Under the pieces are notes generated by a model that was not told the DNA's origin, searched no databases, and saw nothing but the letters and a program-made list of their open reading frames with translations. From contig JANXTN010000033.1 of assembly GCA_025352435.1 (NCBI GenBank), positions 1 to 17,128 of the forward strand: a stretch of 17,128 nucleotides of DNA, given 5' to 3'. Positions 8,133 through 17,128 of this stretch are shown here, piece by piece (positions within the stretch are counted from its first letter, which is position 1; every line of letters starts with the position of its first letter). A program made the translations under genes and the position numbers. The stretch is from Ferruginibacter sp. (lineage in GTDB: Bacteria; Bacteroidota; Bacteroidia; Chitinophagales; Chitinophagaceae).

Positions 8133-10580
8133 TTATACAGGCAGATAGATATGAAAGGTTGCGCCTTCTCCTAAAATGCCTGACGCAGTTATTATCCCGT
8201 TGTGGTTATCTACAATTTTTTTTACAATAGCCAAACCTATGCCTGTTCCCTTGTACGTTTCTTTGCTGTGCAGTTTTTGAAAGACTTCAAAAATACGTTT
8301 ACTGTATTCTGGCTCAAAGCCAATGCCATTGTCTTTGAGGGAGATATGGCAATAGCTATCTTCAGGGATCAAATCTTCATTATTTAATTCACGGCCATAA
8401 GCAATGTGGCTGTTGATAGTAATATTAGGTGTTACATCCTGCTGCGCAAATTTAATAGAGTTGCCAATTAAGTTATGCATAAGCTGACGGAATTGAAAAA
8501 CGATTACTCTTACTTCGCAGGTACTGTGAATGTCAATAACAATATGCTTATTTTCTATACTCTCTTTAAGTTCTTCCTCTACCTCTAACACGATTGATTT
8601 TAAATCAGTTACTACCATTTCCCGATCTATAATATTTACTCTGGAAAAGGAAAGTAAGTCTTCTATTAGTTGCCGCATACGGACAGCTGCACTTTGCATT
8701 CTTCTAAAATAATCTCTGCCTGTATCTGTGAGATTTTGTAATTCACTTTCTATTATTCGCTCTGCAAAAAAAGTTATTTTTCTCAGGGGTTCCTGCAGAT
8801 CGTGACTTGCTACATAAGTAAAAGACTGTAATTCTTTATTTGCCAGAAGCAGTTCATTCGATCTTTTTTCTTTTTCAGCATTTTGAAATGCAAGTTCAGA
8901 ATTTGCAACGCCCAATTCTGCGGAGCGTTTTTCTTTTTCCAGGTTTTGATATATCAGTTCCTTGTTCGCAATCTCCAGTTCAATTGTTCTCTGGGCGACA
9001 GCAGTTTCCAGCATTTCTTTTTGTTTTACCTGTTCATCTATTTCAATTGTATTTCCCACCCAGGTTTTAATTTTTCCCTGCTGATCTTTAACAGGAGTAG
9101 CTAGGTTCAAATGCCATTTATACTCTCCGTATTTATTTAAAAAACGCATTTCCATATTTAAAGGCTTCCCCGTCTGCAGCGCATTCAAAAGATTCTTGCC
9201 GTATGTTTTTATATCTTCAGGATGAAGAATATCGTAATAACCTAATCCTTGCAGTTCTTCGAAGGTCTTCCCCGTATATTCAAGCCATTTTTCATTTAAG
9301 TATAACATTTGTCCATCTGCAGTCGCATTGCTTATTTTAGAAGGAATCAAATCTGCTAATTGTCTAAAGTGTTGTTCACTTTCCTCGAGTTTCAAATTGG
9401 CATTTTTAAAATCAGTTATATCTCTTGATACGGTAAGTAATCTTTCCGCTTTGTTGGTGGCTTCATCTACACGCAGTGGCATCACTATAATATCCCACCA
9501 TTTAGGAGTTCCTTTTGCAGTATTCGACGATGCCTGAAAACGTACTTTTTCCTTGCTAAGTGCTGCTGAAACTGCTTCTTTAATCATCGGCTTATTCTGT
9601 TCTTCCCACAAATCCCACCAATATTTAGTTTCAGCTTCAGCAATGTTATCAATCTCTAAAAGGCAAAGACCGTTTTCATTTATAAATTCAATGCGACCGT
9701 TTTTATCAATAATTTTTATACAATCTGGACTGTTTTCTAAAAATGACTTATTAAACATTTCTGTTTCCTCCATTTTTTTTCTCGCCATCACCATTTCCGT
9801 AACTTCATAAGCTATGGTTGCAACACCTGATGTGTTTTGTTCTTCCTCATAATATGGATGACAGATAATATTAAAAAATCGGTCTTCATTTTTATTATCT
9901 ACTTCCAGTCTTACCAAAAGATCATTTGCGTAAACTGGTTTGCCTGAAGTAAATACCTCCTGTATTTTTTCAAGAAAAGGTTGATTTTTTAATTCAGGTA
10001 ATATTTGCAATAATGCTGTGCCTTCAATATCGTTTCCTTTGCCCCAAAAAGCCTTCATCATATCATTCGCAACCGTTATTAAAAAATTGTCTCCGGTCAT
10101 TATAGAAAATCCAAAAGGAGAGTCCATCAACATATCATAATAACGTTGTTGTGTTGCATCATTTTGAAGATGTATTTTATTATTTTTTTTACGTAGATGT
10201 TCATGATTTTTAGTTGAATAAATTTCTTCTCTTATCTGTAAAATCGATTCAACGTTATTGGCTTCATCGAGCACAGGAACGTGGGTTAATTGCAGAGATA
10301 ATTTTTCAAAACTGTTGCTTGTAACTGTTACCTTATCTGTTATTTTATTTTGAAGAGCGGTGGTTAAAGAACGTTGAATTTTATTTAGTTCTTCAATTGA
10401 AAAATTAGCGCCGTTTTTGGATAAAGCGTATGAAAAATTCTGTCCAACAATCTCGTCTAATGAAATTTTTGTGTGGGAAAGAAAAAGATTTGAAGCCGTT
10501 TTTATTCTAAATTCAGTATTCAGTAAAAGCCCTGAAATTGGTAATTGGTCAAAAAATAAATGATGGTTTGCAATGCTCAT
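8133..10580 (-). CDS. Multi-PAS sensor histidine kinase (cytoplasmic, orthodox)
   Basis: An intact 815-residue kinase with no transmembrane segment, so it senses inside the cell. Four PAS/PAC units can be traced: about 5-118, 145-265, 273-395 and 400-520. The last, with GQMLYLNEKWLEYTG and a WxGNTIEID end, is the clearest. A coiled coil (530-586) follows, built of a 21-residue repeat. HisKA: H593 in SHDLQEPLRKI. The ATPase domain has N703 and N707 (HNLIGNSIKFA), DNGIGF (750-755) and GTGIGLAIVKK (778-788). The chain ends without a receiver, so a separate response regulator is needed. The nearest receivers, at 5951-6559 and 5777-5909, are damaged and are unlikely partners. The ligand is unknown; PAS domains may bind haem, flavin or small molecules. 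Start ATG 10580-10578, divergent from the stress-protein pseudogene. Confidence 0.93.
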   Translation of the reverse strand: MSIANHHLFFDQLPISGLLLNTEFRIKTASNLFLSHTKISLDEIVGQNFSYALSKNGANFSIEELNKIQRSLTTALQNKITDKVTVTSNSFEKLSLQLTHVPVLDEANNVESILQIREEIYSTKNHEHLRKKNNKIHLQNDATQQRYYDMLMDSPFGFSIMTGDNFLITVANDMMKAFWGKGNDIEGTALLQILPELKNQPFLEKIQEVFTSGKPVYANDLLVRLEVDNKNEDRFFNIICHPYYEEEQNTSGVATIAYEVTEMVMARKKMEETEMFNKSFLENSPDCIKIIDKNGRIEFINENGLCLLEIDNIAEAETKYWWDLWEEQNKPMIKEAVSAALSKEKVRFQASSNTAKGTPKWWDIIVMPLRVDEATNKAERLLTVSRDITDFKNANLKLEESEQHFRQLADLIPSKISNATADGQMLYLNEKWLEYTGKTFEELQGLGYYDILHPEDIKTYGKNLLNALQTGKPLNMEMRFLNKYGEYKWHLNLATPVKDQQGKIKTWVGNTIEIDEQVKQKEMLETAVAQRTIELEIANKELIYQNLEKEKRSAELGVANSELAFQNAEKEKRSNELLLANKELQSFTYVASHDLQEPLRKITFFAERIIESELQNLTDTGRDYFRRMQSAAVRMRQLIEDLLSFSRVNIIDREMVVTDLKSIVLEVEEELKESIENKHIVIDIHSTCEVRVIVFQFRQLMHNLIGNSIKFAQQDVTPNITINSHIAYGRELNNEDLIPEDSYCHISLKDNGIGFEPEYSKRIFEVFQKLHSKETYKGTGIGLAIVKKIVDNHNGIITASGILGEGATFHIYLPV

Positions 10581-12137: not shown

Positions 12138-12995
12138 ATGTTATCATCCAAACTAACATTGTCTTTTATATTACTCTCTTTCTTTTTTTTAGGGTGTAAT
12201 AGCAAAATCGAAAAAGAAAAATTCGAGAATTCCAGCACGTTTAATTTTACAAAACCAAAGATTATCAATTTGCCACAATCTTTAAATGAAATTTCTGGCA
12301 TAGCCTACTACCCAAAAGATACAAGTGTTTTTGCCATCATTGATGAAGATGGATTAATGTTTAAAATCTCACTTAACAAAGCTGATGATGTAAAAGAGTG
12401 GAGATTTGATAAAAAAAGAGATTTTGAAGATATTGTTTTAAAAAACAATACATTTTATGTAATGGTTAGCAATGGAGATATGGATAAAATTACCTTCAAT
12501 GGAGATAAAATGTCTGTAGCACAAGTTGATTTTCCCAACGCATCAAAAAAAGTTAATGAATTTGAATCCTTGTATGCTTCTGCTGACAGCAGTAAAATAA
12601 TTATGTTATGCAAACAATGTGAAGACGATAAAAAGAGTAAACTTTCATCTTATTACTTCAGCGATTCAGCTCACCAGTTTATACCTTATAAAACAACAGA
12701 AACAGAATCGTTATTTCAAAAAATTGGAAGTAAAAAAGATAAGATTAAACCTTCGGCTGCTGCTATTAATCCGGTTACAAAAGAGTTATATGTTCTTTGT
12801 TCAGTAAATAAATTTATTTATGTTGAGGATACCGAAGGCAAAATAAAAGAAGTAATCAAACTAAATCCCGTTTTATATAAACAACCTGAAGGAATGACCT
12901 TTACGCCAACAGGCGATTTAATAATATCAAATGAAGTGAATACTGAAGGATACGCAAACTTATTACTTTTAAAAAACCAAAAGACCGGCAAATGA
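12138..12995 (+). CDS. Beta-propeller lipoprotein, SdiA-regulated/esterase-phytase-like
   Basis: A 285-residue protein with a lipoprotein signal: hydrophobic 7-18 and FLGC with the lipidated cysteine at C20. The mature part shows propeller-blade signatures: LNEISGIAYYPKDTSVFAI (49-67), RDFEDIVL, KKVNEFESLYAS, KPSAAAINPVTKELYVL and, near the C-terminus, QPEGMTFTPTGDLIISNE. The last motif is typical of the SdiA-regulated family, whose biochemical role is unclear; distant relatives are phytase-like or esterase-like propellers. The start ATG 12138 gives the signal peptide. The stop overlaps the next start by four bases (ATGA, 12992-12995), so translation of the two is probably coupled. That partner is an exported phosphatase-barrel, so a joint envelope role is reasonable, but the substrate or binding partner cannot be read from sequence. 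Confidence 0.78.
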   Translation: MLSSKLTLSFILLSFFFLGCNSKIEKEKFENSSTFNFTKPKIINLPQSLNEISGIAYYPKDTSVFAIIDEDGLMFKISLNKADDVKEWRFDKKRDFEDIVLKNNTFYVMVSNGDMDKITFNGDKMSVAQVDFPNASKKVNEFESLYASADSSKIIMLCKQCEDDKKSKLSSYYFSDSAHQFIPYKTTETESLFQKIGSKKDKIKPSAAAINPVTKELYVLCSVNKFIYVEDTEGKIKEVIKLNPVLYKQPEGMTFTPTGDLIISNEVNTEGYANLLLLKNQKTGK

Positions 12996-15900
12996 ATAGT
13001 AAATTGATTTTGATTTTAATATTATTTATCCGAATTCCGGGTTTACAGGCACAAACTATTAAAGACGAAAATGATAGTGTGCAAGCCCGAATATTACTTA
13101 TTGGTGATGGTGGTCAACTCACAAATGGAAGACATCCGGTAGTAAATGCTGCAAGGAAAATTGTTCCGATGAATAGCAAAACAACGGTGATATATTTAGG
13201 TGATAACCTTTATAAAACCGGTCTTCCAGATAACACTTTACCTACTTATGATATTGCAAAAGCACCTCTTGATTCTCAAATAGAGATTGCAGGTAAAGCA
13301 CCCGTGAATGTGTTTTTTATTCCCGGAAACCATGACTGGGCCAATGGTTCCAGAATTGGCTATGAGTCTATTTTAAGAGTACAGAATTACATAGATGTAC
13401 TGGGCAATAAATATATACGCCAATTACCCAGAAATGGCTGCCCTGGTCCTGTAGAAGAAAAAATCAATGATGATGTGACCTTAGTGATGGTGGATTCGCA
13501 ATGGTGGTTACAGGAGTTTGAAAAGCCTGGAGTGGAATCTGATTGTCCATACAAAACAAAGGCTGAAGTGATTACACAGCTTCAGGATATAATGGATAAG
13601 AATGACAAGAAATTTGTAATTTTTGCTATGCACCATCCTATAAGAAGTTATGGTCCGCACGGTGGATTCTTCACTTTAAAACAGCATATCTTTCCTTTTA
13701 CTGATGCTATTCCAAAACTCTATATTCCTCTCCCTATTATTGGTTCAGGCTACCCTCTTACCCGTGCCGTATTTGGTACTGCACAGGATCTTAAGCATCC
13801 ATTGTATCAGGAAATGATAACTGCATTTGAAAGTGTAGTGAAGGGGCATAAAAATGTAATTTTTGTTAGTGGTCATGAACATACTTTGCAGTTAATAAAG
13901 GATACCAATTATATAAATATTGTAAGTGGAAGTGGCAGTAAAAATTCCAGAGTTTCAAAAAGCCGCAATACAGTATTTGCTTCCGGCGATTATGGTTTTG
14001 TAACGCTTGATGTTTTAAAAAACAAATCTGTTCGTTCTACTTTTTACAATGTTGATGGAGAGAATGTAAAAAAGGTATTTACACAAAATATTTTAGACTT
14101 CTCTAAAGTAAAAGAGCTGAAAGGAGTTTCTGACACTTTAAGAGAACCGGAGTTTGTTTTTAAGGATAGTGCTGTAATATCTGCAAGCGATAAGTATAAG
14201 AAAGAAAAGAAAATTAAGGATGCTTTTTTGGGTGAAAATTATAGAAGAGAATGGAATACACCAGTGCAGTTCAAAGTATTTAATTTAAGGAAAGAAAAAG
14301 GAGGTTTTATAATAAAAGGAATTGGTGGTGGTAAACAAACAAAATCTTTAAAACTGGAGGATAAAAATGGAAAAGAGTGGACACTCAGAACCATAGATAA
14401 AGATCCGGAGAAAGCTGTTCCTGAAAACTTAAGAGGAACTATCGGGCAGGCTATTGTGGTAGATGTAATAAGTGCAAGCAGTCCTTACGCTCCACTTACT
14501 ATTCCCCCTCTTGCAAAGGCAGCAGGCGTTCCTGCAGCCAATCCGCAATTTTTCTTTGTGCCTGATGATCCTGCGTTTGGTTATTACAGACCTGTATTTA
14601 AAAATACTGTTTGTCTGCTCGAAGAAAAACAACCGACACCTGATGAAACCGATACAAAAAGTACTAATGCTATTATCAACAAATTATTTCAACAGAACGA
14701 CCATCATATAGATCAACCCGCGGTATTGAGAGCCAGGTTATTGGACATGTTGATTGGAGACTTTGACAGACATGCTGACCAGTGGAGATGGGGAACAAAA
14801 GATACAGGAAAAGGTAAAGTTTATTACCCGGTTCCTAAAGACAGAGACCAGGCATATTTTAATTCAAATGGATTATTACTGCGCTACTTATCTGCCAACT
14901 CGATGCCTTTTTTGCAAGGCTTTAAATCAAAGATAAAAGACATAAATGGGTTAAACCTTGTAGCAAAAGATTTTGACAGAACTTTTATGAATGAACTTAG
15001 CAAACAACAGTGGAAATCTATTTCTGATAGCTTCGCACGTAATATAACCAATGAAGTAATTAAGGATGCAGCATCCAAATATCCTCCTGAAATAAAGCAG
15101 TTCGATTCAACATTTACCGCAAAAAGGTTAATGAGCAGAAGAGATGATATGCCCAGGCAGGCTATGAAATATTATAAATTTTTAGCAAAGGGCGTAACCG
15201 TTACGGGTAGCAATGAGGAAGAATATTTTCACGTTCAAAATGATAATGGCGGAATAAAACTTAGTGTATATAATAAAGATAAACACGGCGATACAACAGC
15301 ACTAAATTACCGCCGTACTTTTACTCACAAGGAAACAAGGGAGATTGTATTATATGGCTTAAACGGCAACGATAAGTTTGTCGTAGATGATGATGTTTCT
15401 TCAAGAATAAAATTAAGAATAGTAGGCGGGAAAGGAGATGACACTTTTCATCTTGGCGGTAAAATGAAAAAAACGTTATATGATTTATCAACAGAAAAAA
15501 ATGTTTTTGAACACTCTCGCAATACTGAAAAGCGATTATCTTCTAATCCCAAAATATTAGATTTTAAGAATACAGGTTTTCAATACGATAAATTAACTTT
15601 CCCTCAAATAAATTTTGGATTTAATGCTGAGGATAAATTATTATTAGGAGTTGGATTTACATCAAAAAAATATGGGTTTAGAAAAGATCCTTATGCAAGC
15701 TTACAGAAGCTTACGACCTTATCAGCACTAACAAGGGGAGCTTTTCAGGTAAGGTATGATGGCATTTTTAACCAGGTAATATTAAACAACGATCTGGTTT
15801 TAAATGGAGAATTGCAAACGCCAACACTTTCTAACTTTTTTGGTTACGGCAACCAGACAGCTTACAACAAAACACTCCCTCTTTCTTTTTACAGAACAAG

Positions 15901-16654
15901 GTATAAATACGGGTCGTTTAACATGGCAATTAGAAAAAGATTCAACGATATTTTTCAGTTTAGTATTGGTCCATCCTATTTCCGTTATTGGAATGATGCC
16001 TTAGATAATAAAAACAGAATTTTATCTGTACCCGCTGCAGTTGGTAGAGATTCCGTAAGTCTTTATTCAACAAAACAGTATTTAGGAGGTAAGGTTAAAT
16101 TTGATATCAACTACTTAAACAATGAAATTTTTCCTACAAGAGGAATTACCTGGTTCACAAGCTTTAGTTCTTTAAAAGGCTTAAACAACAGCTCCAAGCC
16201 AATAACGGACCTTCAATCTGACATGACGATCTACGCATCAATTTCTGATCTTAAAAAAGTTTCCGGTGTTCTGCGATTCGGCGGCGGTCGAATTTTCTCA
16301 AGAGATTTTGAATTTTTTCAGGCAAAATCTTTAGGGGTACAAAACTATCTTAGGGGTTATAGAAGAAACCGTTTTTCCGGTAGAGGTATGGCTTACGGAA
16401 GCGGAGAATTACGGGTTAAAATTTTTAAATCTAAATCGTTTGTATTGCCCGGTGATGTTGGGGTTCTGGGGTTTGCAGATTTTGGAAGAGTGTGGCAGGA
16501 TAATGAGAATTCCAAAAAATGGCACAATTCATTTGGTGGAGGTTTGTATTTTATTCCTTTTAATTTAATTGCAATATCTGCAACAGTAGCTGTTTCAAAA
16601 GAAGAAAAGTTATTTAATTTTTCACTTGGAACTAAATTCAATCTTACATTTTAA
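12992..16654 (+). CDS. Exported metallophosphatase / kinase-like / Omp85-type barrel fusion
   Basis: A 1220-residue envelope protein. The signal peptide (1-20) ends at LQA. The metallophosphatase (about 31-345) has the purple-acid-phosphatase motif order: GDGG (D39), GDNLY (D71, Y74), GNHD (N113, H114), MHH (H214/H215) and GHEH (H295, H297). The middle segment (about 425-640) has a glycine-rich turn GIGGGKQTK, a DKDP lysine (K470), LIGDFDRHADQW (587-598) and PKDRDQAYF (615-623), which resemble the loop and metal-binding aspartates of CotH/HipA/Fam20 kinases. An RTX-like stretch, NGNDKF and VGGKGDDTF, lies at 791-819. From about 870 to the terminal F1220 is an Omp85/surface-antigen barrel with the LRGYRRNRFSGRG motif (1120-1132) and a final TF. 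It is probably an outer-membrane protein that positions its own enzyme, like PlpD-type fusions. The phosphatase and barrel calls are strong; the kinase-like call is inference. Confidence 0.85.
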   Translation: MNSKLILILILFIRIPGLQAQTIKDENDSVQARILLIGDGGQLTNGRHPVVNAARKIVPMNSKTTVIYLGDNLYKTGLPDNTLPTYDIAKAPLDSQIEIAGKAPVNVFFIPGNHDWANGSRIGYESILRVQNYIDVLGNKYIRQLPRNGCPGPVEEKINDDVTLVMVDSQWWLQEFEKPGVESDCPYKTKAEVITQLQDIMDKNDKKFVIFAMHHPIRSYGPHGGFFTLKQHIFPFTDAIPKLYIPLPIIGSGYPLTRAVFGTAQDLKHPLYQEMITAFESVVKGHKNVIFVSGHEHTLQLIKDTNYINIVSGSGSKNSRVSKSRNTVFASGDYGFVTLDVLKNKSVRSTFYNVDGENVKKVFTQNILDFSKVKELKGVSDTLREPEFVFKDSAVISASDKYKKEKKIKDAFLGENYRREWNTPVQFKVFNLRKEKGGFIIKGIGGGKQTKSLKLEDKNGKEWTLRTIDKDPEKAVPENLRGTIGQAIVVDVISASSPYAPLTIPPLAKAAGVPAANPQFFFVPDDPAFGYYRPVFKNTVCLLEEKQPTPDETDTKSTNAIINKLFQQNDHHIDQPAVLRARLLDMLIGDFDRHADQWRWGTKDTGKGKVYYPVPKDRDQAYFNSNGLLLRYLSANSMPFLQGFKSKIKDINGLNLVAKDFDRTFMNELSKQQWKSISDSFARNITNEVIKDAASKYPPEIKQFDSTFTAKRLMSRRDDMPRQAMKYYKFLAKGVTVTGSNEEEYFHVQNDNGGIKLSVYNKDKHGDTTALNYRRTFTHKETREIVLYGLNGNDKFVVDDDVSSRIKLRIVGGKGDDTFHLGGKMKKTLYDLSTEKNVFEHSRNTEKRLSSNPKILDFKNTGFQYDKLTFPQINFGFNAEDKLLLGVGFTSKKYGFRKDPYASLQKLTTLSALTRGAFQVRYDGIFNQVILNNDLVLNGELQTPTLSNFFGYGNQTAYNKTLPLSFYRTRYKYGSFNMAIRKRFNDIFQFSIGPSYFRYWNDALDNKNRILSVPAAVGRDSVSLYSTKQYLGGKVKFDINYLNNEIFPTRGITWFTSFSSLKGLNNSSKPITDLQSDMTIYASISDLKKVSGVLRFGGGRIFSRDFEFFQAKSLGVQNYLRGYRRNRFSGRGMAYGSGELRVKIFKSKSFVLPGDVGVLGFADFGRVWQDNENSKKWHNSFGGGLYFIPFNLIAISATVAVSKEEKLFNFSLGTKFNLTF

Positions 16655-16665
16655 AAAGTATTTTC

Positions 16666-17128
16666 ATGTCGTCCTTTTCAATATTATATAAAAAAACAGA
16701 AGCGTTCGTTACAGAAATGTTTCAACGACTTCAACCTCCGCATTTAGTTTTTCATAATTTAGAACATACACAATCAGTTGTAAAAAAAGTAAATGAAATT
16801 GCGGGTCATTATAATCTCACTGATGAAGACATGATGGTGGTGTACGTTGCAGCATGGTTTCACGATACAGGTTATTTGATGGATAAGCCCGAAAATCATG
16901 AATTTAAGAGCGTAGAAATCATGAAGGAATTTATGCTGGAGCAACAAACGGGAGGAGAAGTTATTAATAAAATTGAAAAATGTATTCTGGCAACCAGAAA
17001 TCCAAGAAATCCACAGGATTTGAATTCTGAGATTCTTTGTGATGCGGATACTTATCAGTTTGGAAGTAAAAAGGAATTTAAACGCACCAATAAGCTTGCT
17101 TTTCAGGACGCCTCCCATTTTAGCGAAC
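16666..17128 (+). CDS. HD-domain metal-dependent phosphohydrolase, N-terminal part (possible Pycsar-effector family)
   Basis: The frame is open from ATG 16666 to the window end, giving 154 residues with no stop. HD signature: H30 and H34 in FHNLEHT, the HD pair H66/D67 in WFHDTGY, H78, then CILATRNP and CDADTYQFG with D126/D128 as the last metal ligand. Such domains hydrolyse nucleotide or other phosphoesters. In Bacteroidota this exact N-terminal layout often precedes a membrane domain (DUF5706/PycTM) in proteins labelled Pycsar-system effectors; the C-terminal half is beyond the window, so this remains open. The gene starts only 11 bp after the stop of the barrel fusion and is probably in its operon. 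The visible part has no membrane segment. Confidence 0.82.
   Translation, partial: MSSFSILYKKTEAFVTEMFQRLQPPHLVFHNLEHTQSVVKKVNEIAGHYNLTDEDMMVVYVAAWFHDTGYLMDKPENHEFKSVEIMKEFMLEQQTGGEVINKIEKCILATRNPRNPQDLNSEILCDADTYQFGSKKEFKRTNKLAFQDASHFSE

What the first reader, a model, noticed from the sequence alone, without database searches (positions are those of the whole stretch)
12992..16654. Phosphatase, kinase-like domain and Omp85-type barrel in one exported protein
One chain combines a purple-acid-phosphatase-like enzyme (GDGG, GDNLY, GNHD, MHH, GHEH), a segment with a kinase-like catalytic loop (DFDRHADQW, residues 590-598) and metal motif (DRD, 617-619), and a C-terminal barrel with LRGY. Established: PlpD-type (type Vd) proteins fuse a patatin enzyme to an Omp85 barrel. 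Inference: this is an analogous self-presenting system with a phosphatase as passenger, and perhaps opposing phosphatase and kinase activities on one polypeptide at the cell surface. I am not aware of a characterised protein with this order.
Basis: partly seen in the sequence, partly recalled or inferred. Interest (0 to 1): 0.75.

Follow-up and report, generated by a model that had tools for sequence, protein, structure and literature searches.

The report
Outer-membrane protein with phosphatase and kinase folds
A protein found in many Bacteroidota bacteria ties a phosphate-removing enzyme and a kinase-like domain, not recognised by current domain libraries, to an outer-membrane barrel, usually beside one particular inner-membrane enzyme gene, which suggests an undescribed phosphate-switching device in the cell envelope.

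Summary
The 1220-aa ORF has a signal peptide, a purple-acid-phosphatase (PAP) fold with the metal-ligand positions conserved, a kinase-like domain, and a 16-strand Omp85 barrel. The kinase domain modelled alone (pLDDT 92.5) matches kinases in all 50 PDB entries shown (PI4K-II, CotH, CtkA, HipA, VPS34, Fam20 and others). Its catalytic residues are kept in fused, kinase-barrel and stand-alone relatives; the Pfam scans found no kinase model for it.

The phosphatase-barrel architecture is not new: Heinz and Lithgow (2014) listed PF00149-Omp85 proteins, as "metalloprotease". I did not find the kinase domain or partner genes in the papers searched. The three parts also occur as three adjacent genes, two of them lipoprotein-like. 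Of 77 fusion places tabulated from a 296-genome sample, 65 have a PycTM gene within 10 kb. A second version, with a different kinase-like protein, sits in a gene run with a TLC ATP/ADP-type transporter.

Best reading: an outer-membrane-tethered, periplasm-facing kinase/phosphatase pair. Substrate, phosphate donor and activity are unknown.

The parts
12992..16654 (+). whole gene: signal peptide - PAP-like phosphatase - kinase-like domain - beta domain - Omp85 barrel (1220 aa)
12992..13054 (+). signal peptide, residues 1-21 (hydrophobic run then LQA|Q; no lipobox)
   Evidence: read from the sequence; not scored by a predictor
13073..14107 (+). purple-acid-phosphatase-like domain, residues about 28-372
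14153..15196 (+). kinase-like domain, residues 388-735
14324..14341 (+). glycine-rich turn GGGKQT (445-450), between two strands as in a kinase G-loop
14759..14785 (+). catalytic loop DFDRHADQW (590-598); D590, D592, R593, H594 55/55; Q597 53/54
14840..14848 (+). metal motif DRD (617-619), directly after the strand where kinases carry DFG; D617 and D619 54/54
   Evidence: the DFG comparison is by order of elements, not superposition
15191..15559 (+). strand-rich domain with GGKGDD (812-817), residues about 734-856; stays with the kinase part when the parts are split
15581..16642 (+). 16-strand Omp85 barrel, residues about 864-1217
   Evidence: NF047779 Omp85_fam E 1.3e-17 but 64.4 bits against a cut-off of 200
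16349..16360 (+). LRGY (1120-1123), Omp85 loop-6-type motif (name recalled)
12138..12995 (+). SdiA-regulated-type (PF06977) propeller gene, lipoprotein-like start (by eye), overlapping the main gene by 4 nt; neighbour in many relatives
16666..17127 (+). start of an HD-domain gene that runs off the window; in relatives the full gene is HD-PycTM

Best explanation
The protein is an outer-membrane-anchored enzyme pair. [quoted passage not shown] The two enzymes act in opposite directions on the same class of periplasmic or membrane-bound substrate (protein, lipid or glycan phosphate). The system is coupled to an inner-membrane HD-PycTM enzyme encoded beside it and, in some lineages, to a propeller lipoprotein, a class III cyclase or a TLC nucleotide transporter. 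Shown by computation: domain folds, conserved active-site residues, modularity, gene linkage. Inferred: periplasmic side, catalysis, shared substrate, coupling, phosphate donor.
Against: No biochemical evidence at all. The periplasm is normally thought to lack ATP (recalled). The window's own genome, 84.85% complete, shows no TLC transporter, and only 19 of 296 genomes do. Of 48 tabulated places with the kinase but no phosphatase, only 16 have a PycTM gene within 10 kb, so the linkage is mainly a feature of the full fusion. Many relatives lack the phosphatase, so the kinase cannot always depend on it. Sequence profiles alone do not show kinship to known kinases. Bacteroidota can export lipoproteins to the surface (recalled), so surface exposure is not excluded.
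Confidence: 0.5

Rival explanations
1. Type-Vd-like self-presenting protein: the barrel moves the phosphatase and kinase to the cell surface, where they act on external phosphoesters or host molecules.
For: The same order, enzyme then Omp85 barrel, as PlpD, which the 2014 survey describes as surface-delivering (PMC4104836, section 10).
Against: PlpD's domain was later reported in the periplasm (PMC11116518, passages). The enzymes occur as separate lipoprotein-like genes and as kinase-only-length proteins with signal-like starts and no barrel.
Confidence: 0.15
2. Phosphate-scavenging phosphatase: the PAP domain releases phosphate in the periplasm and the kinase-like domain only binds the substrate or regulates, without phosphotransfer.
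For: PPK1 lies beside several loci. ATP is not expected in the periplasm (recalled).
Against: Catalytic-loop and metal residues are nearly invariant, including in proteins without any phosphatase, unlike decaying pseudokinases. The PPK1 excess, 7 of 35 against 1 of 20, is not significant (P 0.13).
Confidence: 0.2
3. Outer-membrane assembly factor: an Omp85 barrel that still inserts or exports proteins, with the enzyme domains as regulators of that work.
For: Barrel matches BamA/TamA. Heinz and Lithgow call an assembly role the most conservative hypothesis for unknown subfamilies.
Against: No POTRA domain in the Pfam scan. The kinase part occurs without a barrel (L053, L054).
Confidence: 0.1
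4. Part of a Pycsar-like anti-phage system, because PycTM and sometimes a cyclase are its neighbours.
For: PycTM neighbour; class III cyclase within 0.3 kb of 7 of 35 loci.
Against: Widespread and co-occurring across the phylum sample: 93 of 109 tabulated kinase genomes have the high-scoring PycTM, more like a core function. The low-scoring PycTM class is never nearby (0 of 27). PADLOC finds nothing in the protein.
Confidence: 0.05

Closest known systems
Omp85 'Metallo' subfamily (Heinz and Lithgow 2014, PMC4104836; section 10 and passages seen)
   Same: PF00149 N-terminal domain with an Omp85 barrel, listed among non-POTRA architectures; very likely the same kind of protein
   Different: There called a metalloprotease and said to be conserved only at genus level; no kinase domain or partner genes in the text seen. 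Here it is spread across the phylum sample.
PlpD / patatin-Omp85 (type Vd)
   Same: Exported enzyme fused to an Omp85 barrel
   Different: Different enzymes, no patatin; PlpD has a POTRA domain; a kinase-like domain and a strand-rich domain lie between enzyme and barrel here
Purple acid phosphatases (pig, human TRAP) and Plasmodium GAP50
   Same: Fold; metal-ligand motifs of the purple acid phosphatases
   Different: Fused to a kinase-like domain and a membrane barrel; about 18% identity over the aligned part
Helicobacter pylori CtkA, PI4K type II, VPS34, CotH, HipA, Fam20 kinases
   Same: Fold; DRH-type catalytic loop. A profile of kinase-only-length relatives aligns its DWDRHADN with CtkA's FDRHNGN (E 0.36, not significant alone)
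   Different: Exported and barrel-linked; no Pfam kinase model among the families shown; Q often replaces the second metal-ligand N in barrel-linked members; DRD in place of DFG
NTT/TLC nucleotide transporters of free-living bacteria (Major 2017, PMC5381601; passages seen)
   Same: The roughly 910-aa TLC genes of the K60 runs may be the NTT-HEAT type the paper describes (the HEAT part was not tested here)
   Different: The paper says functions of the fusion genes are unknown; here they sit in a run with a kinase-like protein, a barrel and, in three genomes, a phosphatase

Membership tests
Omp85 superfamily | 16-strand C-terminal barrel | tested here: met
Omp85 superfamily | loop-6 (V/L)RG(F/Y) motif (recalled) | tested here: met
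   LRGY 1120-1123
Omp85 superfamily | one or more POTRA domains | tested here: inconclusive
   No POTRA hit in Pfam; the fold search was filled by other domains. POTRA-less members are accepted
Omp85 'Metallo' subfamily | PF00149 domain before an Omp85 barrel | tested here: met
   the subfamily's own sequence tables were not seen
Purple acid phosphatase fold | fold plus seven metal ligands in five motifs (ligand list recalled) | tested here: met
Purple acid phosphatase fold | phosphatase activity | not testable with these tools
   needs a bench assay
PI3/4K-CtkA-CotH-HipA kinase-like fold | two-lobe kinase fold | tested here: met
PI3/4K-CtkA-CotH-HipA kinase-like fold | catalytic Asp, second metal ligand and DFG-position Asp | tested here: met
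   Positions by secondary-structure order and conservation; residue-level superposition was not available
PI3/4K-CtkA-CotH-HipA kinase-like fold | match to a Pfam kinase model | tested here: not met
   61 members of A4 scanned at E 0.5: 25 of 26 families shown, none a kinase; five window or split kinase-type proteins likewise; hhalign to CotH weak (P 0.025)
PlpD / type Vd | patatin enzyme domain | tested here: not met
   no patatin in Pfam; the domain is PAP
PlpD / type Vd | enzyme domain delivered to the surface | not testable with these tools
   PlpD itself was reported periplasmic
Pycsar | pyrimidine cyclase plus effector as the defence pair | tested here: inconclusive
   PycTM neighbours, cyclase only in some loci; cyclase specificity not tested

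The most novel reading that the evidence does not exclude
A phylum-wide Bacteroidota envelope switch. An exported PI3K/CtkA-like kinase family without a Pfam model and a PAP phosphatase reversibly phosphorylate an outer-membrane lipid or protein. An inner-membrane HD-PycTM enzyme reads or feeds the state, and in some lineages a TLC transporter exports ATP into the periplasm to drive it, which would give NTT transporters of free-living bacteria a purpose.
Probability: 0.2. Interest if true: 0.93.

Novelty: new variant of a known kind. Interest (0 to 1): 0.74.

Why it matters
If the kinase domain is active, phosphate would be put on and taken off molecules outside the cytoplasm of many bacteria, where ATP is not expected. 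The gene linkage gives testable partners, a candidate ATP supplier in a few lineages, and a likely function for a large set of proteins now called hypothetical or metallophosphoesterase. It also asks what PycTM genes do outside phage defence.

Tried and rejected
Surface self-presentation: rejected as the leading reading. Metalloprotease (the 2014 label): PF00149 is the calcineurin-like phosphoesterase model and the fold is PAP. Anti-phage DS8 hit (NF053861, E 0.0013): far below its cut-off (16.6 against 790 bits), and PADLOC is empty; dropped. Riemerella anatipestifer metallophosphoesterase (Niu 2021): paper not held; a review table lists it as a T9SS effector (PMC10202324, passages), so treated as a different protein; its sequence was not compared.

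Weak or negative results: K60 against KIN by hhalign not significant; KIN against CotH only P 0.025; a profile search of solved structures gives CtkA only at E 0.36, behind two unrelated hits, and the A2 profile gives no kinase; K60 finds no Pfam family and no convincing PDB match. Of 10 K60 places, 9 were aligned; 3 of the 9 have lost the catalytic motif. PPK1 linkage is not significant against controls (P 0.13), though seen in Pedobacter and Ferruginibacter loci. A genome-wide PPK1 census never ran. Three of 61 kinase members show a sub-threshold T9SS C-terminal signal (CHU_C, best E 0.037); not followed.

Limits of the counts: at most two candidate stretches per genome were scored in the rows seen, so its counts are lower bounds. 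The 40 test loci were picked by hand's rows (35 fusion, 5 kinase-barrel), mostly one per genus; the 20 controls come from 20 of those 40 genomes at fixed offsets. Neighbour probes were neighbours already seen at relatives. The Fisher tests ignore relatedness of genomes. One search used 55 of 56 kinase-bearing and 53 of 54 phosphatase-bearing ORFs (short matches dropped). In one search the 121 fused proteins include the window's own and are at least 59% identical to it; the kinase-barrel set includes the own-genome copy twice; the 120 kinase-only-length proteins include some fragments (P0311 and P0316 are named 'partial'). Not-in-print statements rest on ten searches of an open-licence library. 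Only joined Omp85 with a kinase term; its one paper was seen in the listing only.

Full report
What is there. The gene at 12992-16654 (+) is one intact ORF of 1220 aa. Among Pfam families only the phosphatase passes its cut-off (PF00149, E 4.8e-6, residues 33-226). NCBIfam gives an Omp85 match at 1111-1216, E 1.3e-17 but below its cut-off. The nearest named relative is a Ferruginibacter MAG contig (L004, 87% identity); Ferruginibacter belongs to Bacteroidota.

Conservation. In 53 phosphatase parts from fetched loci the ligand positions D71, Y74, N113, H214, H215, H295 and H297 are each 53/53, and D39 is 52/52. In 55 kinase parts R466, D491, E544, D585, D590, D592, R593 and H594 are 55/55; K470 is 54/55, Q597 53/54, D617 and D619 54/54. 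In database relatives the pattern D.DRH..[QNEH] with a following DRD is found in 120 of 121 fused, 121 of 121 kinase-barrel and 120 of 120 kinase-only-length proteins. The last set is the best 120 of 2,280 hits (7,996 candidates scored), none with a precomputed Pfam domain; a few are fragments. Many of them carry N where the fused ones carry Q. True stand-alone genes are seen in context in L053 and L054.

Parts list in nature. A search of 296 genomes of the phylum found a match in 147. Of the rows tabulated, 77 places in 72 genomes span phosphatase to kinase, and 48 places in 45 genomes have the kinase without the phosphatase. The window's own genome has a second, kinase-barrel copy (L002, 854 aa). 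In two genomes of one genus the kinase, phosphatase and barrel are three adjacent same-strand genes, in the order kinase-phosphatase-barrel, which differs from the fusion; the first two start like lipoproteins (L051, L052; read by eye). Stand-alone phosphatases occur too (L055, L059).

A second version. In three genomes of one genus (L145-L147) an unbroken same-strand run holds a TLC transporter gene (about 910 aa), an Omp85 barrel, a 558-568-aa lipoprotein-like gene called K60 here, and the phosphatase. TLC is Pfam's ATP/ADP transporter (PF03219). K60 shows NDTDRRDANT and a later DFG, like a HipA-type kinase (comparison recalled), but has no detectable sequence kinship with KIN and was not folded. 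Seven of 296 genomes have K60. In six a TLC gene lies beside it; the seventh (G147) has a K60 relative without the catalytic motif and no TLC. One fusion locus (G286) also has TLC directly upstream. TLC is in 19 of 296 genomes; in the other 13 no such adjacency was seen in the listed rows. The window's genome shows none, so TLC cannot at present explain ATP supply in the window's organism.

Neighbours. Around 35 hand-picked fusion loci, 7 kb each side, against 20 control regions from 20 of the same genomes: HD-PycTM or one of its halves 32 against 0; SdiA-type propeller 14 against 0; PPK1 7 against 1; class III cyclase 7 against 0; TLC 1 against 0. Around five kinase-barrel loci: 2, 1, 2, 2 and 0. 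One-sided Fisher P values are 3.5e-12, 5e-4, 0.13 and 0.033 for the first four, without correction for relatedness. Pfam confirmed PycTM in five of five neighbours tested from these loci. A separate whole-genome search for PycTM, tabulated, splits in two: 105 places at 70 bits or more, of which 80 lie within 10 kb of a match, and 27 weaker ones, of which none does. Of 77 fusion places 65 have PycTM within 10 kb; of 48 kinase-only or kinase-barrel places 16 do. At genome level the kinase is in 109, the strong PycTM in 100, both in 93. The HD active-site residues (H41, H73, D74, D132, D134) are kept in 20 or 21 of 21 full-length neighbours aligned, and the representative examined has three hydrophobic stretches. 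In the window the HD gene starts 11 bases after the stop codon and runs off the end. Contig C14 of the same genome begins with a PycTM half followed by PPK1, the order seen in Ferruginibacter L005.

Mechanism. The best reading is a kinase and a phosphatase held on the periplasmic face of the outer membrane, acting against each other on a shared kind of substrate and coupled to an inner-membrane HD-PycTM enzyme. The periplasmic side is inferred from PlpD, whose patatin domain was reported to stay in the periplasm (PMC11116518, passages), and from the split lipoprotein-like versions. Catalysis, substrate and phosphate donor are unproven. ATP outside the cytoplasm is the main difficulty; the TLC runs suggest one answer for a few lineages.

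Known or new. Heinz and Lithgow 2014 (PMC4104836, section 10 and passages) catalogued PF00149-Omp85 proteins as 'Metallo', named the domain a metalloprotease, and left topology and function open. The kinase domain, the split genes and the PycTM and TLC links were not found in the ten paper searches listed under Tried and rejected, which cover open-licence papers only. Major 2017 (PMC5381601, passages) reports NTT transporters in free-living bacteria, with functions of the fusion forms unknown. The 2025 Flavobacterium BAM paper (PMC12611786, passages) has no word beginning with phosphatase, kinase or phosphoesterase in its main text. So: a known architecture with an unrecognised enzyme domain and a new, strong genetic context.

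Noticed in passing
L145:849-7706 (-), L146, L147: Four-gene run: TLC ATP/ADP-type transporter, Omp85 barrel, K60 (HipA-like motif), phosphatase; K60 has no Pfam family and no convincing PDB sequence match
   Followed up: partly
PycTM (PF18967) falls into two score classes in this phylum sample; only the strong one is tied to the fusion gene. Some genes annotated as Pycsar effectors may not be defence genes.
   Followed up: partly
L069, L071, L072: K60 relatives that have lost the catalytic DxxxxN and DFG residues: possible pseudokinases; beside a barrel gene in L069 and L071
   Followed up: no
L061:4014-5798 (-): Barrel protein that keeps only the strand-rich domain with a GGSGND motif and lacks the kinase part
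   Followed up: no
L107-L112: Class III cyclase (TPR repeats in the one scanned, L110) within 0.3 kb of the fusion in six loci of one family, with a NUDIX gene nearby in three
   Followed up: partly
window 15425-15442: GGKGDD in the strand-rich domain resembles RTX calcium-binding repeats (recalled)
   Followed up: no
window 8133-10580 (-): 815-aa ORF that reads like a PAS sensor histidine kinase (by eye); not linked to the finding
   Followed up: no
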